The position numbers and the translations under genes are program-made. Of a stretch of 35,086 nt of DNA, positions 10,852 to 32,889 are shown piece by piece; within the stretch, counting starts at the first letter, position 1, and every line of letters begins with the position of its first letter. The notes below the pieces were generated by a model. The model ran no database searches. It had not been told where the DNA came from and was given only the letters and a program-made list of their open reading frames with translations. Origin of the DNA: an uncultured bacterium (GTDB taxonomy: Bacteria; Cyanobacteriota; Vampirovibrionia; Gastranaerophilales; Gastranaerophilaceae); assembly GCA_902777605.1 (NCBI GenBank), contig CACYUI010000016.1:1-35086 (forward strand), in the 5' to 3' direction.

Positions 10852-12117
10852 TCATGCGGCATTCTTAGATTCTTTTAACCAGTTGTTTACCATGTCTGTT
10901 GTAATCTTAATTTTTTCACCACTGTTCTTTGGCATTATAAATATTTTATGAGCAATGTTTTCCGCTATATCAGTAGCTTCACGACCACCTTGATCAGATA
11001 CACTATTTGCTATCAAATTAAATATTTCTTGATCAACTTCTACTTTGTCATCCATTTTATGATATTTCATAGATCGGTCAAACTTAAATTTTGCTACCTT
11101 TGCTTTTTCATCAAGCGTATACGGTTGAATTTTAAATTTGTATGAAATTCTATCTCTTAGAGGTTCGCTAAGTTTTTTAAAATCGTTTGTTGTTATTAAT
11201 ACTATAGAATCAGATATATCAACATCGACTCCTAAGAAATCGTCTTTTATTTTATGTCTGCCATCTAACAACGGCAAAATAGTATCTTCTATTTTACCAT
11301 TATGATCAGATGTACCTGTTTTTTCCAATTCATCTAGAGTATAAACAATATTTTTTGTTTTGTACTCAAGTTGTGCATCGGCAAATTCACCCCAACTTGA
11401 ACCTGTATACACCGATTCATTACCTATAATTTTTGATTTACCTGTTGCACCTGCCATATTGATTTCTTTGTGAGGAAGACCTGCTGCTTTTGCAATCGCT
11501 CTTCCTATAGTTGTTTTAGCAGTACCTGCAGGACCATCTAATGATACTACAAGAGGTTTATCTGGTTTTATCCCTTGTTCTATACATTTATTCCTGTAAT
11601 CTAAAAATTCCAAAACTTGTTTTTTTACACCATCCATACCAATAATTTCTTCATCTAACACTTTTTTTGCATTTGCAATATCAATTGATTTTACAGTGTC
11701 TTCTTTCATTTGAGCTAAGTCTTTTAAAGCTTCTATTTTTTTATTAGACATCATCATTGGACCTTTAGCATATTCTTCAGCCAAAGCTCTTTTTATCTGA
11801 TCATTTTTGCAATTTTGCATAATATCCGTTAAACTATCACTTGCTTTTTCTGTTGTTTTTTTCATTGCCTTTGCAACTTTTCGTTCCAAATAACTAGATT
11901 TTAGTTCTCTGCCAAGCAATAAACCAAAGAACGCTAAAACTACAACAGAACTTGCCGTTCCGATAATCTGAGTTGCGGAATATTTTTTCTTAGGTTTTTT
12001 TGTCGTTACTATATCATATTGCGGTTCTATAACATATTGCGGGCTTAATTTTCTTTGGCTATCAGCTTTAAAATTTAATTTATTTGCATACGGGGTAATG
12101 CTATTCACTTCAAACAT
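10852..12117 (-). CDS. Membrane-anchored Lon-type AAA+ ATPase lacking a protease domain
   Basis: Order: a short cytoplasmic leader (with the word NKLNFKAD near residue 15), a basic KKPKKK stretch, one transmembrane helix at about 49-69, a charged helical/coiled region 70-150, then an AAA+ module at 155-400. Walker A is GPAGTAKTT (195-203), Walker B is YTLDELEK (Asp262, Glu263), sensor-1-like TTND is at 309-312 and the arginine-finger segment is EPLRDRI (318-324). IIGNESVYTGSSWGEFADAQ matches the pore-loop region of Lon (RGHRRTYVGAMPGR type), so Lon is the closest well-known family. The LAN substrate domain and the Ser/Lys protease domain of Lon are absent: the protein ends about 20 residues after the small helical domain. 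It probably remodels or extracts proteins at the membrane; substrates are unknown. ATG with AAAGGAG upstream. Confidence 0.7.
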   Translation of the reverse strand: MFEVNSITPYANKLNFKADSQRKLSPQYVIEPQYDIVTTKKPKKKYSATQIIGTASSVVVLAFFGLLLGRELKSSYLERKVAKAMKKTTEKASDSLTDIMQNCKNDQIKRALAEEYAKGPMMMSNKKIEALKDLAQMKEDTVKSIDIANAKKVLDEEIIGMDGVKKQVLEFLDYRNKCIEQGIKPDKPLVVSLDGPAGTAKTTIGRAIAKAAGLPHKEINMAGATGKSKIIGNESVYTGSSWGEFADAQLEYKTKNIVYTLDELEKTGTSDHNGKIEDTILPLLDGRHKIKDDFLGVDVDISDSIVLITTNDFKKLSEPLRDRISYKFKIQPYTLDEKAKVAKFKFDRSMKYHKMDDKVEVDQEIFNLIANSVSDQGGREATDIAENIAHKIFIMPKNSGEKIKITTDMVNNWLKESKNAA

Positions 12118-12379: not shown

Positions 12380-13366
12380 ATGGGATTAGCCGTTTCACAA
12401 GTTAGATTTTTAGCACTGACCGCCCGCAAAGCTGATTGCGAGTACGGTATCTCTGTTAATTCTATGGAAAAAATGGCTCTTACAAGAGAGCAGGCCAACC
12501 TTTCGCAAGAATACTACAGTAAATTAAAGGCTTCGAAAATTACTTATTTCGCAAATGGCCAATATAATAAGATGAATTATGGATATCTAATGGGATATGG
12601 TAAAAATTATACAGCTATTACTGCAGGAACCGCGGCACTAAAAAGCGATAACTCAATGATTTTGACAGACTTTAGAGGCTCTGTTGTCATTAACGGAGGT
12701 ATTGCCTCTATTTTAGAAAGCAAATATGGAATTAATGCACAAGGAAGAGGTGGTACCTTCTCTCAAAGTGATATCCCAGAATTAATTTCTGAAGTAATGA
12801 ATGGTGTCATTACTGCAGACGAAGTTAAAACAATACAAGACGGAGGAAAGGTTAACCGAGTTTGCACAGCTACTGTATATAAAACATTAACCGGTGAAGC
12901 CGTTGGTAAAAATGACAACTACGATTATTCTGAAAAAACAACTGAACTTTTCAAAAAGATTATCGATTTTTATGCTCCAATTTTCCAAGCATGCGCAGCA
13001 AACGGGTGGACAACAGAATACAACCAAGACATGGCTGCAAATGATGATTACATAAGCGATGCGTTGGTTACAGGGACTTTCTGTTTAGCGAAAGTTGATG
13101 AAGAAGGCACATATGAACCTAACACTTCTTTAACTTACTTTATGACAGCAGGACTTGTTCAAGAAAGAACTGACTCCGATGTCAGAGAAGAAATTACTGC
13201 ATGGTATAACGCTGAAAAAGAAAGAATTTCCGAAAAAGAAAACTTTTTAGATATAGAAATTAGAGATTTATCAACTGAGCTTGAAGCAATTAATACAGAG
13301 TTGCAATCTCTTAAATCTCTAATCGATGATGCAATTCAGTCTGTATTTGATTGGGGTAGTTCATAA
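12380..13366 (+). CDS. MGLAxSQ-family protein of unknown function (first copy)
   Basis: 328 residues, no signal peptide and no membrane helix. The N-terminus MGLAVSQVRFLALTARKADC is followed by a helical segment (MALTREQANLSQEYYSKLKA). A variable globular middle follows (residues 70-260). The C-terminus is a coiled coil (EKENFLDIEIRDLSTELEAI then LKSLIDDAIQSVF). Both ends match the protein at 31717-32889: MG-A-SQ near the start, and D-x-E-x2-L-x-T-x3-A-x2-T-x4-LK-x-I-DD near the end. Helical conserved ends around a variable centre resemble flagellin or hook-associated proteins and some type III-secreted proteins. That is a resemblance only. AAAGGAAAG about 6 nt before the ATG. A GC-rich repeat is in its leader and a terminator lies 22 nt past the stop. 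Confidence 0.65.
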   Translation: MGLAVSQVRFLALTARKADCEYGISVNSMEKMALTREQANLSQEYYSKLKASKITYFANGQYNKMNYGYLMGYGKNYTAITAGTAALKSDNSMILTDFRGSVVINGGIASILESKYGINAQGRGGTFSQSDIPELISEVMNGVITADEVKTIQDGGKVNRVCTATVYKTLTGEAVGKNDNYDYSEKTTELFKKIIDFYAPIFQACAANGWTTEYNQDMAANDDYISDALVTGTFCLAKVDEEGTYEPNTSLTYFMTAGLVQERTDSDVREEITAWYNAEKERISEKENFLDIEIRDLSTELEAINTELQSLKSLIDDAIQSVFDWGSS

Positions 13367-18018: not shown

Positions 18019-18675
18019 ATGTTTTATTTTGATGATTATTTAGGGAATAAAGTTTTAAGAAGTGACTATCTTAAAAATATTAATGCGTTTTTTACAACAA
18101 GAGGGGTAAATATATATCCTCGAAATGGTATTAGAGTAATTTCTCCCATTCAAACTCATAGCGACCATATTGAAGTTGTTGATAAAAGGAACGGTTATCC
18201 TGATACAGACGGACTTATTGTCACAAAGCAAAACATAATGATATATCTCAGGTTCGCAGATTGCACTCCGTTAATATTTTATGATCCGATCAATAAAATT
18301 GGCGCGGTTTCTCATGCCGGATGGCGCGGAACTGCTGCAAAAATCGGTGTTAAAACAATAAAAAAAATGGGCGAAATTTTTGGATCTAAAGCAAAAGATA
18401 TAGTTGCATTAATTGGACCTGCTATATCTGTATGCTGCTATGAAGTTTCCGATGATGTGAGAGAAAAACTTATATCAACAGTAAATAATATTGACGGACT
18501 GATTCTAGGTAAAAATGTAGATTTAAAACAAATTAACGCAAGACAACTTCAAGAAGCCGGAGTTGAAAAAATTGACATTTGTCCATATTGCACCTCTTGT
18601 AATAACGATTTATTTTATTCGTACAGAAAAGAGAACGGCACGAAAGAAAGACATTTTGCCGCATTAATGCTTTAA
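18019..18675 (+). CDS. pgeF: Laccase-domain purine nucleoside phosphorylase / multicopper-type protein (YfiH/PgeF family)
   Basis: Members act as purine nucleoside phosphorylase/adenosine deaminase and were earlier called polyphenol oxidase. Family motifs are in order: PIQTHSDHIEVV, RFADCTPLIF, SHAGWRGTA, IGPAISVCCYEV, CPYCTSC and FYSYRKENGTKERHFAALM. The metal-binding His and Cys residues in QTHSD, ADC and HAGWRG are present. 218 residues is shorter than the common 240-250 because the N-terminal strand region is trimmed. The ATG has no ribosome site but a strong promoter right before it, supporting a leaderless start. It converges on the next gene, sharing the TTAA of both stop codons. Confidence 0.88.
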   Translation: MFYFDDYLGNKVLRSDYLKNINAFFTTRGVNIYPRNGIRVISPIQTHSDHIEVVDKRNGYPDTDGLIVTKQNIMIYLRFADCTPLIFYDPINKIGAVSHAGWRGTAAKIGVKTIKKMGEIFGSKAKDIVALIGPAISVCCYEVSDDVREKLISTVNNIDGLILGKNVDLKQINARQLQEAGVEKIDICPYCTSCNNDLFYSYRKENGTKERHFAALML

Positions 18676-20303
18676 GCTATTTGTTCTTTATTAGCTTCGG
18701 CTTTTCTTTTTTTATCAAGAGCGTTAGTAATATATATATTCAAGTTTGGAATACCCAAACCAAGTACAAGACCAGAGAACAAGTATCCTGCAGCTTGAGC
18801 TTTATTTAAAGTTGATAAGCGTTTTTTAGTCATCTTTTGCAATTCCGGTGACAGCTTATTCAAATCAGCTTGCATTTCTTTAAATGTTTTTGCAACAAGA
18901 TTTCCATCTACATTCTTAGTAGACTTTATACCATTCTTAGCCAATGTTTCTATCAAAATTTCATCTCTTGTTTTTAAAGAAGAGTTAAACATTTTCTTAA
19001 AGTAACCGGCTTTTTCAGTACCTTTTTTGAAATTCATTACAGACGGATCAAGCTTTCCTGCTGCCATTCTATTAACAATATCGCCGAGTACTAACCAACT
19101 TAAGTATCCGAGAGTATCTTTTGTCAGAACTTCTCTTAGTTCATCCTTATCACGAGCAGAGAAGATTCTTGAAATAATGGTGACCCCGTAGATTCCTTTT
19201 AACTGGTTAATTGTAGGCATTTTACCAGTAAATGCCATCTTATCCATAAATTTCTTAGGAGTAAACTGCCATGGTTTAATATTTAGAGTTGATAAAATCA
19301 TGCTAAAGAATGCAGCACTACTTAAACCTTTTAAGCCAAAGAAACCTGCACTTGTATCTTTCGAACGACCTTCAACACCAACAAAACCATCTTGACCTGT
19401 TTTTAGTTTTGTCAGGTACATATTAATAGGCTGAACAGAAAGACCAATAGCGGAAGCTATTGCAAATCCCATTCCAGCTCTGGTTTTCATAAATCTTTGA
19501 ACTCCTTTAACAAAAGCATTGTCTTTTATGCCTTTATTATTCTTAATTTGTTCAACAAAAGCTGCATTTACTTTTTGCTTATTAAATGAATCTGACACTA
19601 TATATATATCATTCAACAAAGATTTTAAGTTAGTTTTACTTACAATCTTTTTATCAGCAGATTCCAAGATATAATCAGATTGAGCACCTGTATCCTCAGT
19701 TATTCTATTAATTAAAACTGCTCTGGCATTTTCTGTTTTATCTTTAGTCCAAGTATGGAAATCTACTTTTTCATTCAATAATTTATCATATAAGCCTGCA
19801 ACTTCATCTATTGTTGATTTAGAAAGTTTCACATAACCGTCTTTATCAGCGTTTACAGATGCAGGATTATATGCTCTTACACTATTTAAAGTCTCTTTTA
19901 TGTACTCTAGCTGAGTCTTATTATTCTTCAGTTGTTCTGATTTATTTTCTGCCAATATATCCAATGTTTCAGGAGCCGTAAACATTCTATTAACATTTGC
20001 ATCAAATTTCTTATTTACAGCACCGGCAATCAATGCACCTGCAGCAGCTCCAAACAAACCGACGCAAGAATCATTTACAGTACCCATAATCTCACGACGA
20101 AAAGTTTCAAGACCTGCTGCTGGTCCTCTTTTTACAGTATCAGAAGCTGTTCTTGGTGTAACCATAAAACAAAAGTCAACACCATTTGCACCAATCGCCT
20201 GATTGGTAGCTAAATATCTGAATGTTGAATCCACAGCACCGTTAAACTGAGGGTGCTTTACTGCATTTTGATTTTCTTTTGTTGTGATTGATTGTACTTT
20301 CAT
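18672..20303 (-). CDS. Tandem paralogous multi-pass membrane protein (downstream copy), unknown family
   Basis: 543 residues. A cytoplasmic-type leader with the word HPQFNGA near residue 20 is followed by PRTASDTVKRGPAAGLETFRRE and about five hydrophobic segments (SCVGLFGAAAGALIAG, GMGFAIASAIGLSVQP, LSSAAFFSMILSTL, LGYLSWLVLGDIV, YLFSGLVLGLGIPNL). It clearly matches the preceding gene product (20324-22003): PRT...AG.E.FRRE..G...C, then S.Q.IN, then the region PTINQLKGIYGVTIISRIFS beside PTMDQARVISTTTFASRMAA, then D-K-x-E-L and GD. So the pair arose by duplication. AGGAAACT before the ATG; 20 nt from the upstream copy's stop, so co-transcribed. No known domain is recognised. The C-terminus is basic (KKRKAEANKEQ). 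Confidence 0.75.
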   Translation of the reverse strand: MKVQSITTKENQNAVKHPQFNGAVDSTFRYLATNQAIGANGVDFCFMVTPRTASDTVKRGPAAGLETFRREIMGTVNDSCVGLFGAAAGALIAGAVNKKFDANVNRMFTAPETLDILAENKSEQLKNNKTQLEYIKETLNSVRAYNPASVNADKDGYVKLSKSTIDEVAGLYDKLLNEKVDFHTWTKDKTENARAVLINRITEDTGAQSDYILESADKKIVSKTNLKSLLNDIYIVSDSFNKQKVNAAFVEQIKNNKGIKDNAFVKGVQRFMKTRAGMGFAIASAIGLSVQPINMYLTKLKTGQDGFVGVEGRSKDTSAGFFGLKGLSSAAFFSMILSTLNIKPWQFTPKKFMDKMAFTGKMPTINQLKGIYGVTIISRIFSARDKDELREVLTKDTLGYLSWLVLGDIVNRMAAGKLDPSVMNFKKGTEKAGYFKKMFNSSLKTRDEILIETLAKNGIKSTKNVDGNLVAKTFKEMQADLNKLSPELQKMTKKRLSTLNKAQAAGYLFSGLVLGLGIPNLNIYITNALDKKRKAEANKEQIA

Positions 20304-20323
20304 AGTTTCCTATTTGCTATTTA

Positions 20324-22003
20324 TTATGCGGTTTGTGATTTCTTATCAGCACGAAATCCTGCTGTAAGGTTGGTATATTTTACATTCAATGGAGTTATAC
20401 CATCATTTTTATTATTGTCATCGACTTGTGTAATATTGTTTTCTTGTGCCAATTTTAAAGCTTTTTCATGCTTTTTCTTTGTACTGCGACGAGTGAAAAT
20501 CGGTATAATTAATCCCAACAATGCTAATGATACACCGATATTAGCTCCTTGGCAAGCCGCTCTTAAATTTTTAGCATGGCTAATTTCTTTTGCAATCTTC
20601 TTAGCTTGTTCTTCTGTCGGTTTTACACCTTTTAGAGCTTGTTCTGTTTTACTCAATACTTCGTCTGAAGATTTTATATTAACATCTTTTACCCAATGTA
20701 TAAATCTTTTAACCATAGAAGAATTTTTATCTATTGATTTTGTATCATTTAGAAGCGTAACACCTGTTTTCTTTTGTAATAATGTTGCCATACCTTTTGC
20801 AGCATAATCACCAAAGAAATACAGACCGCAGAATGTAGCAATATCTCTAACTGTAGATTCTGCCAGCTCATTCTTATCATCTGCTGCTGCCATACGAGAA
20901 GCAAAAGTTGTAGTAGAAATGACTCTTGCCTGATCCATTGTAGGAAATATTCCTTTAAATTCAAGAATTTTCATTGTTGGCATTTTCATCATAGAAAGCA
21001 ATCCAACACCAATCATTGAAGATATTGAAATTATTTTTTGTTTTAATAAACCTTCTTTTGCTTTTGGGTTTTCTTCTATATTGTCATCACCTTTGCCAAA
21101 ATCATCGTATATTGGAGCACCCTTTGTACCTGAAACTTTTCCTGTTATCCATCTATTAATATATTGCATTGAAGCAGCTAGCGGAAGAACAACTGCTAAC
21201 CCGAGTAAGCTCTTTGTTCGAACCATTCTTCTACATTTTTTAGCAAATTCTTCAATACCAATTCTTCCTTCTGTTCTTTGGAATTCTCTGTAGAACTTAA
21301 CAGTATCATTAAGCATTGATTTTACAGTAGATGCTTTTACATTTTCTACTTTTACATTGTCTGAAACATGAGTTTTTGAAACAATTTCTTCTGCGATTGT
21401 TTTTATTTGTTTACTCATTTCGCTATTGCTTATATTAGCTCTTGATATTTCTGCGAGTTTTTTAGCATAATTATTAACTACTTCCTCACCAAGCGCATCT
21501 TTAAATAAAACTTTTTTATCTGTTTCAAATCCTTCAAGATTTCCAACCATTTTGCGCATAGCTTCTTCTACTTTGTCTGTTGAAGATGCATTCTTGTAAT
21601 AATCAGTAGCTTTAGTTAGCAAATCACTATCAGCCCAGCTTCCTGACATGTTTATTCCTTTTGGCATAAATGCCGGATTTAAACATTTTGCTATTCCTAG
21701 CGTTATAACGCTTGGAATCATACAGTTTACAATTAGACCGGAAGACTCTCTTCTAAAAGCTTCAAAACCGGCAAACCAATTAGTCATAGATTCAACTATA
21801 GTTCTCGGAAGAATAGCAGACAACATGTCAATTACAGCAACATTCACCATTGGAATTTGCTCACATTTCTGAATTCCTGCAAGAACAAGTGCACCCGCTC
21901 CTTTAAAGTTTGGGCTCTGTATCCCTTTCTTATTCTGACGGTTTACTTTGCTATTTATTATGCTAGTTTCGTCTACACTACTAATTTTCTCGATCATACA
22001 CAT
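20324..22003 (-). CDS. Tandem paralogous multi-pass membrane protein (upstream copy), unknown family
   Basis: 559 residues. The leader carries QSPNFKGAG (like HPQFNGA in its paralogue). Then come PRTIVESMTNWFAGFEAFRR, hydrophobic segments (LIVNCMIPSVITLGIA, LLGLAVVLPLAAS, IISISSMIGVGLLSMM, IATFCGLYFFGDYAA, GANIGVSLALLGLIIPIF) and a basic tail TRRSTKKKHEKALK. A charged helical domain spans about residues 125-235. It is likely an integral membrane protein with both ends in the cytoplasm. The ATG at 22003 or the one at 21997 could be the start; neither has a strong ribosome site. TATAAT lies about 20 nt upstream. Function unknown; no catalytic motif seen. Confidence 0.75.
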   Translation of the reverse strand: MCMIEKISSVDETSIINSKVNRQNKKGIQSPNFKGAGALVLAGIQKCEQIPMVNVAVIDMLSAILPRTIVESMTNWFAGFEAFRRESSGLIVNCMIPSVITLGIAKCLNPAFMPKGINMSGSWADSDLLTKATDYYKNASSTDKVEEAMRKMVGNLEGFETDKKVLFKDALGEEVVNNYAKKLAEISRANISNSEMSKQIKTIAEEIVSKTHVSDNVKVENVKASTVKSMLNDTVKFYREFQRTEGRIGIEEFAKKCRRMVRTKSLLGLAVVLPLAASMQYINRWITGKVSGTKGAPIYDDFGKGDDNIEENPKAKEGLLKQKIISISSMIGVGLLSMMKMPTMKILEFKGIFPTMDQARVISTTTFASRMAAADDKNELAESTVRDIATFCGLYFFGDYAAKGMATLLQKKTGVTLLNDTKSIDKNSSMVKRFIHWVKDVNIKSSDEVLSKTEQALKGVKPTEEQAKKIAKEISHAKNLRAACQGANIGVSLALLGLIIPIFTRRSTKKKHEKALKLAQENNITQVDDNNKNDGITPLNVKYTNLTAGFRADKKSQTA

Positions 22004-22024: not shown

Positions 22025-22053
22025 ATTATATCAACTTATATATATATTTAAAA
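22025..22053 (-). promoter_or_regulatory. Putative promoter of the tandem paralogue operon
   Basis: Minus strand consensus TATAAT (22025-22030); the -35 position (TTTTAA, 22048-22053, 17 nt away) is weak. AAGT...ACTT arms flank the -10 box. Transcription would start about 15 nt before the ATG. Confidence 0.45.
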
Positions 22054-31639: not shown

Positions 31640-31716
31640 AGCTTTTAACCCTAAAGTTTTTGACTGAGCGTGCCGTAAATCATGGTACTAGGGAAATTAT
31701 AAGGAAAAGTACCACC

Positions 31717-32889
31717 ATGGGAATGGCAGCGTCACAAGCACAATTATTATCAATTACAGCGCAGATGCACGACATTGAACGCAAAGCTCAAACTATACAG
31801 AATAGAAAAATTGAACTTGCAACTCAAAAAGATGATCTGTATCAAAAGTACTGCGATGCTTTGGATGCTAAAAAAATACAAGTTGCCATGCCCGATATTA
31901 CAACAGGAAAAATGACATATGTTGATGCAAACTTTAACAATGTTTGCAACTACCAAGAGGGGAGAAATGTACAATATGCTCTTCGCGATGCCAAAACAAA
32001 CAAGGTTATTGTAAGTCAAGATGTATATGATATGTACTATGGAAGCGATGAAGACTTTGCATACAGCAATGATAAATATTCATTTGCTTGGGCAATGCTT
32101 GATTATGACGGACAATTTTGCTTCGAAGATTTTGAAAATAAGGATGGATTCTGTGTTGGGACATGGCAAGAAAGTGATAATGAAGCTGGTGAAGAATTTA
32201 TCACCATGACACAAGCTGAAGAATTGGTTTACCGTAATCATGAAAGTGAATTAGCAGGCAGTTATGACACTTTGCAGCAAGCTATTGAAGGTGGTAATTC
32301 TGGTGAAATAAATGATGCATTAGGAAAATTTAGAGATGAACTATATAGAAAATTCTCAGCAGAAATTCTTGAATATATGAATGTTGGTAAAGACATAATA
32401 TATGATGAAGAAGAGTTTATACTCTCTGATTATCAAGATGAACCTTGGAATCCTGATTTTGACCAAAATGAATTCAATTATTATGTCCGTTTATTTGAGG
32501 AAATACAAGCCTCTGGAGGATGCGAAACCATTGATTCATTGGCAGAAGATGGTGACACCGGAAAAGATTGGTTTAATAGCATGGTTAATTCGGGCAGAGT
32601 ATTAATTGATTTTTATAACACAAATAATCCACAAAAAGGCTGGACAGAAACAAGCGTTGCGACTTCTACTACACAAAACTACTTACAAAAAATTCATGAT
32701 GATTCAAAAGATCAAATTGCAGAAGCAGAATACGAACATGAACTTGGTCTCATAAATGCAAAAGACAAAAGATTTGATCAAGAACTGAGTAACTTAGAAA
32801 CTAAAAGAAGCGCACTTAAAACTCAACAGGATGCACTCAAAACTATTATTGATGACAACCAAGGCAGAACATTTGGTATATTCAGTTAA
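31717..32889 (+). CDS. MGMAxSQ-family protein of unknown function (second copy)
   Basis: 390 residues from the ATG at 31717. An in-frame TTG at 31660 would add 19 residues, but MGMAASQAQLLSITAQ matches the start of the family member at 12380, and AAGGA lies 11 nt upstream. No signal peptide or membrane helix. A helical N-terminus (KIELATQKDDLYQKYCDAL) leads into an acidic, aromatic-rich variable middle (about residues 60-300) and a C-terminal coiled coil ending TQQDALKTIIDDNQGRTFGI. The protein is strongly acidic. Shared ends with the 12380 gene imply common handling, perhaps by a secretion or assembly system. A strong terminator follows about 90 nt downstream. Confidence 0.7.
   Translation: MGMAASQAQLLSITAQMHDIERKAQTIQNRKIELATQKDDLYQKYCDALDAKKIQVAMPDITTGKMTYVDANFNNVCNYQEGRNVQYALRDAKTNKVIVSQDVYDMYYGSDEDFAYSNDKYSFAWAMLDYDGQFCFEDFENKDGFCVGTWQESDNEAGEEFITMTQAEELVYRNHESELAGSYDTLQQAIEGGNSGEINDALGKFRDELYRKFSAEILEYMNVGKDIIYDEEEFILSDYQDEPWNPDFDQNEFNYYVRLFEEIQASGGCETIDSLAEDGDTGKDWFNSMVNSGRVLIDFYNTNNPQKGWTETSVATSTTQNYLQKIHDDSKDQIAEAEYEHELGLINAKDKRFDQELSNLETKRSALKTQQDALKTIIDDNQGRTFGIFS

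What the first reader, a model, noticed from the sequence alone, without database searches (positions are those of the whole stretch)
18672..22003. Tandem pair of undescribed paralogous membrane proteins (FRRE family)
The two adjacent proteins (543 and 559 residues) share a spaced signature: PRT, AG.E.FRRE..G, S.Q.IN, PT..Q, SR..., D-K-x-E-L and GD. They have similar hydrophobic segments and basic tails. I recognise no known domain. Size, duplication and a dedicated promoter suggest a lineage-specific membrane system.
Basis: partly seen in the sequence, partly recalled or inferred. Interest (0 to 1): 0.6.

Follow-up and report, generated by a model that had tools for sequence, protein, structure and literature searches.

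The report
Tagged tandem membrane-protein pair, Gastranaerophilales
Two neighbouring genes in a gut bacterium related to cyanobacteria encode an undescribed, always-paired membrane protein duo that carries a short N-terminal tag also found on unrelated proteins, which hints at a protein-sorting or secretion route not described before in this group.

Summary
The pair is real. ORFs 18672-20303(-) (P1, 543 aa) and 20324-22003(-) (P2, 559 aa) are 22% identical paralogues with shared, conserved motifs. No Pfam, NCBIfam or PDB-sequence relative and no significant PDB fold match was found. They are conserved in Candidatus Gastranaerophilales, where P2-P1 stand in tandem in 78 of 80 loci; the other two lie at contig ends.

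(2) Each chain has a disordered N-terminus with an F-[KRGNST]-[GSAN] tag. Unrelated tagged proteins (M16 peptidase, HD hydrolase, PlsC-like acyltransferase) conserve it in their orthologues far above shuffles. (3) P1 has the weakest transmembrane hydrophobicity of 63 polytopic proteins sampled, P2 the sixth weakest. (4) The genome holds a second, non-flagellar type III export apparatus, kept in species without flagellar FliF.

Best mechanism (0.4): an exported, membrane-inserting hetero-oligomer, the tag being its export signal. Main rival (0.35): a resident inner-membrane complex with a localisation tag. The link from tag to apparatus is inferred, not shown.

The parts
18672..20303 (-). P1, 543-aa tagged polytopic membrane protein (downstream gene of the pair)
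   Evidence: orthologues; AlphaFold2 model pLDDT 85.4, pTM 0.83
20324..22003 (-). P2, 559-aa paralogue (upstream gene of the pair)
   Evidence: BLASTP to P1 E 5e-14; model pLDDT 75.2, pTM 0.70
20238..20252 (-). N-terminal tag of P1, P18-Q-F20-N-G22
   Evidence: F20 nearly invariant in A3; tag found in 59 of 64 orthologues vs shuffled mean 18.5, max 28; residues 1-21 disordered (pLDDT < 50)
21899..21913 (-). N-terminal tag of P2, P31-N-F33-K-G35
   Evidence: F33 invariant in A4; tag in 53 of 59 orthologues vs shuffled mean 10.1, max 17
20091..20156 (-). P1 repeat 1, first motif P50-R-T...D55...E66-T-F-R-R70-E71
   Evidence: P50, R51, E66, R70, E71 invariant in 102 sequences
19410..19433 (-). 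P1 repeat 1, second motif Q291-P-I-N294-x3-T298
   Evidence: Q291, N294 invariant, T298 nearly so; aligned to the repeat-2 motif by hhalign
19116..19169 (-). P1 repeat 2, first motif R379...D385-K-D-E388-L-R-E391...D396
   Evidence: R379, D385, E388, L389, E391, D396 invariant; internal repeat
18726..18740 (-). P1 repeat 2, second motif N522-x3-T526
   Evidence: T526 nearly invariant; internal repeat
21746..21808 (-). P2 repeat 1, first motif P66-R-T...E81-A-F-R-R85-E86
   Evidence: invariant columns of A4
21143..21166 (-). P2 repeat 1, second motif Q280-Y-I-N283-x3-T287
   Evidence: invariant columns of A4
20843..20896 (-). P2 repeat 2, first motif R370...D376-K-N-E379-L-A-E382...D387
   Evidence: invariant columns of A4
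20480..20503 (-). P2 repeat 2, degenerate second motif P501...R505...T508
   Evidence: P501 and T508 nearly invariant, R505 invariant
22025..22052 (-). sigma-70-like site upstream of P2 (TTTAAA-16-TATAAT, extended -10)
   Evidence: number of such sites in the region is at chance level

Best explanation
P1 and P2 are two subunits of one membrane complex. Each is a tandem duplication of a helical unit that bears an E-x3-R-[ED] helix start and an N-x3-T helix end. SHOWN: paralogy, constant pairing, internal repeat, split-gene relatives, weak transmembrane hydrophobicity, a conserved N-terminal F-x-G tag shared with unrelated proteins, and a second non-flagellar type III export apparatus in the same genome. 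INFERRED: the tag is an export or routing signal read by that apparatus; the weakly hydrophobic helices avoid the SRP/Sec route; the pair leaves the producing cell and inserts as a hetero-oligomer into another membrane, functionally like a type III translocator pair or membrane effectors.
For: Tandem in 78 of 80 loci. Internal repeat: hhalign 95.6%, E 1.2e-8, score 49.5 against a column-shuffled maximum of 19.1. Split halves match profile columns 26-302 and 347-509 at E 8e-24 and 3e-22, and several split chains carry their own F-x-G. The tag is conserved in orthologues of M16 (24/30, shuffled mean 4.7), HD (21/24 vs 6.7) and PlsC-like (6/7 vs 1.3) proteins. P1 is the least hydrophobic of 63 polytopic proteins, two paralogues are 2nd and 3rd, P2 6th; tagged versus untagged p = 0.009 and 0.016 in two genomes. 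Type III membrane substrates mostly escape SRP by moderate hydrophobicity (PMC12981334, citing Krampen 2018). Second FliE-FliF-x-FliH-FlhA cluster and SctQ-like/FliO-FliP-FliQ-x-FliR cluster; genomes with one FliF keep the short FliP only. The family is found where the second apparatus is found: f1, f6, f9, f15. In two f9 genomes the family block lies about 8-9 kb from the SctQ-FliR cluster. Genes stand alone apart from their partner.
Against: No experiment or interaction data link the tag to the export apparatus. Co-occurrence is phylogenetically confounded; f14 has the second FliF but no family hit, and one f1 genome (G248) has the apparatus without the family. Type III membrane substrates mostly have one or two helices, whereas these are predicted with about six or seven. 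Tagged enzymes such as PlsC and AAA+ would need cytosolic cofactors. A simple genome-wide count of tagged N-termini is only weakly above shuffles (21 vs 11.8 +/- 3.5 in G000; 8 vs 6.3 +/- 2.5 in G068). No type III chaperone gene lies beside the pair.
Confidence: 0.4

Rival explanations
1. Resident inner-membrane hetero-oligomer (transporter, channel or scaffold). The duplicated E-x3-R-E / N-x3-T units build a pseudosymmetric core, and the N-terminal F-x-G is a docking tag that brings several cytosolic enzymes and membrane proteins to a common site inside the same cell.
For: Conserved gene pair throughout the genus and related genera. Confident multi-helix model with a soluble insert. Tagged enzymes include acyltransferase, GNAT, HD and AAA+ types that normally work in the cytosol. 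Duplicated helical units are common in transporters (general knowledge).
Against: Weakest hydrophobicity among polytopic proteins sampled. No transporter fold or family match. No conserved functional neighbour.
Confidence: 0.35
2. Structural or assembly parts of the second type III apparatus itself (for example a membrane platform around the gate), not substrates.
For: Co-occurrence with the apparatus; family block 8-9 kb from SctQ-FliR in two f9 genomes.
Against: The same tag is on enzymes with no structural role. Gene loci are separate from the apparatus in G000, where they lie on different contigs, and in G101. f14 has the second FliF without the family.
Confidence: 0.1
3. The F-x-G tag is not a sorting signal but a degradation or translation feature of lineage-specific N-termini, and the pair is an ordinary orphan membrane family.
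For: Genome-wide enrichment by simple counting is modest.
Against: Conservation of the tag inside otherwise variable N-termini in five families and its presence on separate chains of split relatives.
Confidence: 0.15

Closest known systems
Type III translocator pairs and type III membrane effectors (YopB/YopD and Inc classes, named from general knowledge)
   Same: Tandem pair of moderately hydrophobic proteins with disordered N-termini and no Sec signal, in a genome with a type III export apparatus
   Different: No sequence match to any such family in Pfam/NCBIfam; more predicted helices; a conserved F-x-G consensus, unlike the usual poorly conserved type III signals; no chaperone gene beside the pair; export not shown
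Duplicated-unit membrane transporters (3+1+3 helix architecture such as SWEET, from general knowledge)
   Same: Two homologous helical units in one chain, with a connecting helix in the model
   Different: No fold match by Foldseek or VIA-align (best Z 5.3 to membrane pyrophosphatases, 146 residues, 4.1 A); charged conserved motifs at helix starts; large soluble insert inside repeat 1
Flagellar/non-flagellar type III export apparatus
   Same: Second set of FliE, FliF, FliH, FlhA, FliO, FliP, FliQ, FliR homologues is present in the genome
   Different: This is the proposed machinery, not the pair; the second FliF and FlhA score below the curated flagellar and SctV/SctJ cut-offs

Membership tests
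Type III secretion membrane substrates (works like) | Functional type III export apparatus in the same cell | tested here: inconclusive
   Second FliE-FliF-x-FliH-FlhA and SctQ-like/FliO-P-Q-x-R clusters found; a second ATPase, FlhB and secretin were not searched; function not testable
Type III secretion membrane substrates (works like) | N-terminal, unstructured, non-Sec signal | tested here: met
   Residues 1-21 of P1 and 1-34 of P2 pLDDT < 50; no hydrophobic signal peptide; conserved F-x-G tag
Type III secretion membrane substrates (works like) | Moderate transmembrane hydrophobicity | tested here: met
   P1 rank 1 and P2 rank 6 of 63 from the low end
Type III secretion membrane substrates (works like) | Simple topology, one or two helices in most substrates | tested here: not met
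   Models with about six or seven membrane-type helices; norm quoted from PMC12981334
Type III secretion membrane substrates (works like) | Dedicated chaperone gene beside the pair | tested here: not met
   No recurrent neighbour in 80 loci other than the partner
Type III secretion membrane substrates (works like) | Secretion demonstrated | not testable with these tools
   needs experiment
Known transporter or other curated family | Profile match above curated cut-off | tested here: not met
   Pfam and NCBIfam, no family above cut-off
Known fold in PDB | Significant structural match | tested here: inconclusive
   No Foldseek hit at E <= 0.001 for P1 or P2; best VIA-align Z 5.3; AlphaFold DB not available
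Non-flagellar type III apparatus (second system of the genome) | Second core export set distinct from the flagellum | tested here: met
   Flagellar P-Q-R-FlhB-FlhA at C2 and separate second sets at C1 and C11; most f1 genomes keep only the second FliF, and the sampled ones only the short FliP
Non-flagellar type III apparatus (second system of the genome) | Export ATPase, SctU/FlhB and outer-membrane secretin of its own | not tested

The most novel reading that the evidence does not exclude
Gastranaerophilales and related orders have a conserved non-flagellar type III-like export system whose clients carry a consensus N-terminal F-x-G signal, and P1/P2 are its core membrane-inserting hetero-oligomeric substrate with a new fold built from duplicated helical units.
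Probability: 0.3. Interest if true: 0.85.

Novelty: new variant of a known kind. Interest (0 to 1): 0.62.

Why it matters
Gastranaerophilales are widespread gut bacteria whose interactions with hosts are little known. A conserved F-x-G tag would turn many unknown proteins into a testable set of co-routed proteins, and the pair would be its most conserved membrane client. The one related genome paper read here describes flagella and type IV secretion in Vampirovibrio and holds no mention of type III secretion (PMC4451040). A full-text search found only two open papers that hold the words Melainabacteria, type III secretion and flagellar together.

Tried and rejected
Viral origin: no relative in viral contigs and only chance-level PHROGs hits. 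Profile A1 was too diverse for a collection scan, so A2 was used. Genome-wide counting of the tag was only weakly above shuffles, so the argument rests on conservation among orthologues. The AAA+ protein of the window gave only distant hits inside larger ORFs (716-828 aa), uninformative. A tagged protein at L147:14308 has no relatives at E <= 1e-8 in 57 genomes other than itself. The murC neighbourhood of one paralogue suggested a cell-wall role but is not conserved. The ATP-synthase operon next to the pair in about 19 loci is convergent and clade-specific. Internal repeat: weak with P1-only or P2-only alignments; clear only with the diverse alignment and with segments that I chose after seeing the motifs. 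It is confirmed independently by the split genes. Structure libraries gave no significant match.
Full report
OBSERVATION. Two ORFs lie in tandem on the - strand: P2 (20324-22003, 559 aa) then P1 (18672-20303, 543 aa), 20 bp apart. They are 22% identical over 483 residues, E 5e-14. Two further paralogues sit elsewhere in the genome, on contigs C22 and C15. In an alignment of 102 P1 and P2 orthologues P50, R51, E66, R70, E71, Q291, N294, K325, P363, Q367, S378, R379, D385, E388, L389, E391, D396, G407 and others (P1 numbering) are invariant.

DISTRIBUTION. The window belongs to a Candidatus Gastranaerophilales genome: the closest named relatives are rumen and gut assemblies with that name. Members are present in 79 of 97 relatives with P1 as query. 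With a profile, 114 of 194 genomes of the class match: nearly all of family f1, plus f6, f9 and f15, and weak single hits in f11 and f12; none was seen among the listed f8, f10, f13 or f14 genomes. In 80 loci from public genomes the P2-P1 tandem is present in 78; the other two are at contig ends. No other neighbour recurs generally, and the paralogues have no conserved neighbours either. The pair is therefore the only conserved unit.

NO KNOWN FAMILY. Pfam and NCBIfam gave no family above cut-off, PHROGs only chance-level hits, PDB sequences none of note. AlphaFold2 models are good for P1 (pLDDT 85.4, pTM 0.83) and fair for P2 (75.2, 0.70). Foldseek and VIA-align found no significant PDB match (best Z 5.3 to membrane pyrophosphatases over 146 residues). 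A missing match does not prove a new fold, and predicted cellular structures could not be searched.

ANATOMY. P1 has a disordered N-terminus (1-21), membrane-type helices around 35-100, a soluble insert (about 100-262), helices 263-302, 319-339, 365-382 and 386-418, a small insert, and a final helix 486-542. The protein is duplicated: E66-T-F-R-R70-E71-x2-G74 matches E391-x3-K395-D396-x2-G399, and N294-x3-T298 matches N522-x3-T526. With the diverse alignment A1, hhalign of the two units gives 95.6% probability, E 1.2e-8 and score 49.5; 59 column-shuffled controls reach 19.1 at most and the reversed control 20.2. The segments were chosen after seeing the motifs, but uncut halves also match locally.

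SPLIT RELATIVES. In families f9 and f15 the two halves are separate, adjacent genes. The first protein (about 470-560 aa) matches profile columns 26-302 at E 8e-24 and the second (about 230-290 aa) columns 347-509 at E 3e-22. A divergent second pair is transcribed in the opposite direction in three of these genomes; its second member is related to the other second half (E 1.9e-7). So the two halves work together even as separate chains, which supports a hetero-oligomer. In G110 and G121 this block lies about 8-9 kb from a SctQ-like/FliO-P-Q-R cluster.

THE TAG. Both proteins start with a short conserved stub, then a variable linker, then F-[KRGNST]-[GSAN]. P1 orthologues keep it in 59 of 64 (shuffled mean 18.5, max 28), P2 in 53 of 59 (mean 10.1, max 17). 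Unrelated proteins of the same genome have the same N-terminus and keep it in their orthologues: an M16 peptidase in 24 of 30 (mean 4.7, max 12), an HD protein in 21 of 24 (6.7, max 12), a PlsC-like acyltransferase in 6 of 7 (1.3, max 5). Several separate chains of the split relatives carry their own tag (FSG, KFSG, RFGG, RFQG). Simple genome-wide counting is only weakly above shuffles (21 vs 11.8 +/- 3.5), so the tag claim rests on conservation, not on counts.

HYDROPHOBICITY. Among 63 polytopic proteins in sampled stretches of the genome, P1 has the lowest mean peak hydropathy, the two paralogues are second and third and P2 sixth. Tagged polytopic proteins are less hydrophobic than untagged ones in this genome (p 0.009) and in a genome of another family (p 0.016); without family members the effect weakens (p 0.098 with n=3, and 0.039 with n=2). 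Moderate hydrophobicity is a known feature of membrane substrates of type III and type IV secretion, which mostly escape SRP (PMC12981334).

A SECOND TYPE III APPARATUS. The genome has three FHIPEP (FlhA/SctV) matches. One belongs to a flagellar P-Q-R-FlhB-FlhA set. A second lies in a FliE-FliF-x-FliH-FlhA cluster whose FliF and FlhA fall below the curated flagellar cut-offs, with a second SctQ-like/FliO-P-Q-x-R cluster on another contig; both clusters recur in relatives. The third match is partial. Most f1 genomes have only the second FliF; the single-FliF f1 genomes checked have a single, short FliP. This is a non-flagellar export apparatus kept after loss of the flagellum. Its ATPase, FlhB and secretin were not searched.

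MECHANISM. Shown: pairing, duplication, tag conservation, weak hydrophobicity, presence of the second apparatus. Inferred: the tag is the signal for this apparatus, and the pair is exported and inserts elsewhere as a hetero-oligomer (0.4). The main rival is a resident inner-membrane complex with a localisation tag (0.35). The co-occurrence is confounded by phylogeny, f14 breaks it in one direction, and the predicted number of helices is high for a type III substrate. Experiments in the next-steps field would separate the two.

NOVELTY. The family is undescribed by the libraries used. I rate it a new variant of a known kind (a membrane protein pair that may be a type III client), with a more novel reading at probability 0.3.

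Noticed in passing
G000:C1:203940-209926 (L292) and G000:C11:4769-8749 (L146): Second, non-flagellar type III export apparatus (FliE-FliF-x-FliH-FlhA; SctQ-like/FliO-FliP-FliQ-x-FliR), kept in relatives that have no flagellar FliF; the open papers searched hold no description of it.
   Followed up: partly
window 10852-12117 (-): AAA+ protein with one membrane segment (weak Torsin similarity) bearing the same N-terminal tag (LNFKA).
   Followed up: partly
window 12380-13366 (+) and 31660-32889 (+): Two proteins of a 'MG[ML]A.SQ...LTAR' type; similar proteins stand near the second FliE-FlhA cluster in genome G101 (L317:1560-4454) and might be axial or filament parts.
   Followed up: no
L137:5638-8451, L139:15665-16423, L150:10881-11777 (genome G000): M16 peptidase, HD-domain protein and PlsC-like acyltransferase with conserved N-terminal F-x-G tags.
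   Followed up: yes
L357:15013-20000, L359:2968-8478, L360:3095-8048: In f9/f15 genomes the family forms two divergently transcribed gene pairs of split halves, next to a diadenylate-cyclase-like gene in all three.
   Followed up: partly
L036:5560-11204 (genome G000, contig C22): One paralogue and another tagged, weakly hydrophobic membrane protein flank murC in a murC-murB-ddl stretch; the murC link was absent around the paralogues in the other genomes checked.
   Followed up: yes
L145:6019-7482 (genome G000, contig C10): A protein that matches only the C-terminal half of FlhA/SctV (FHIPEP) behind an unrelated N-terminus.
   Followed up: no
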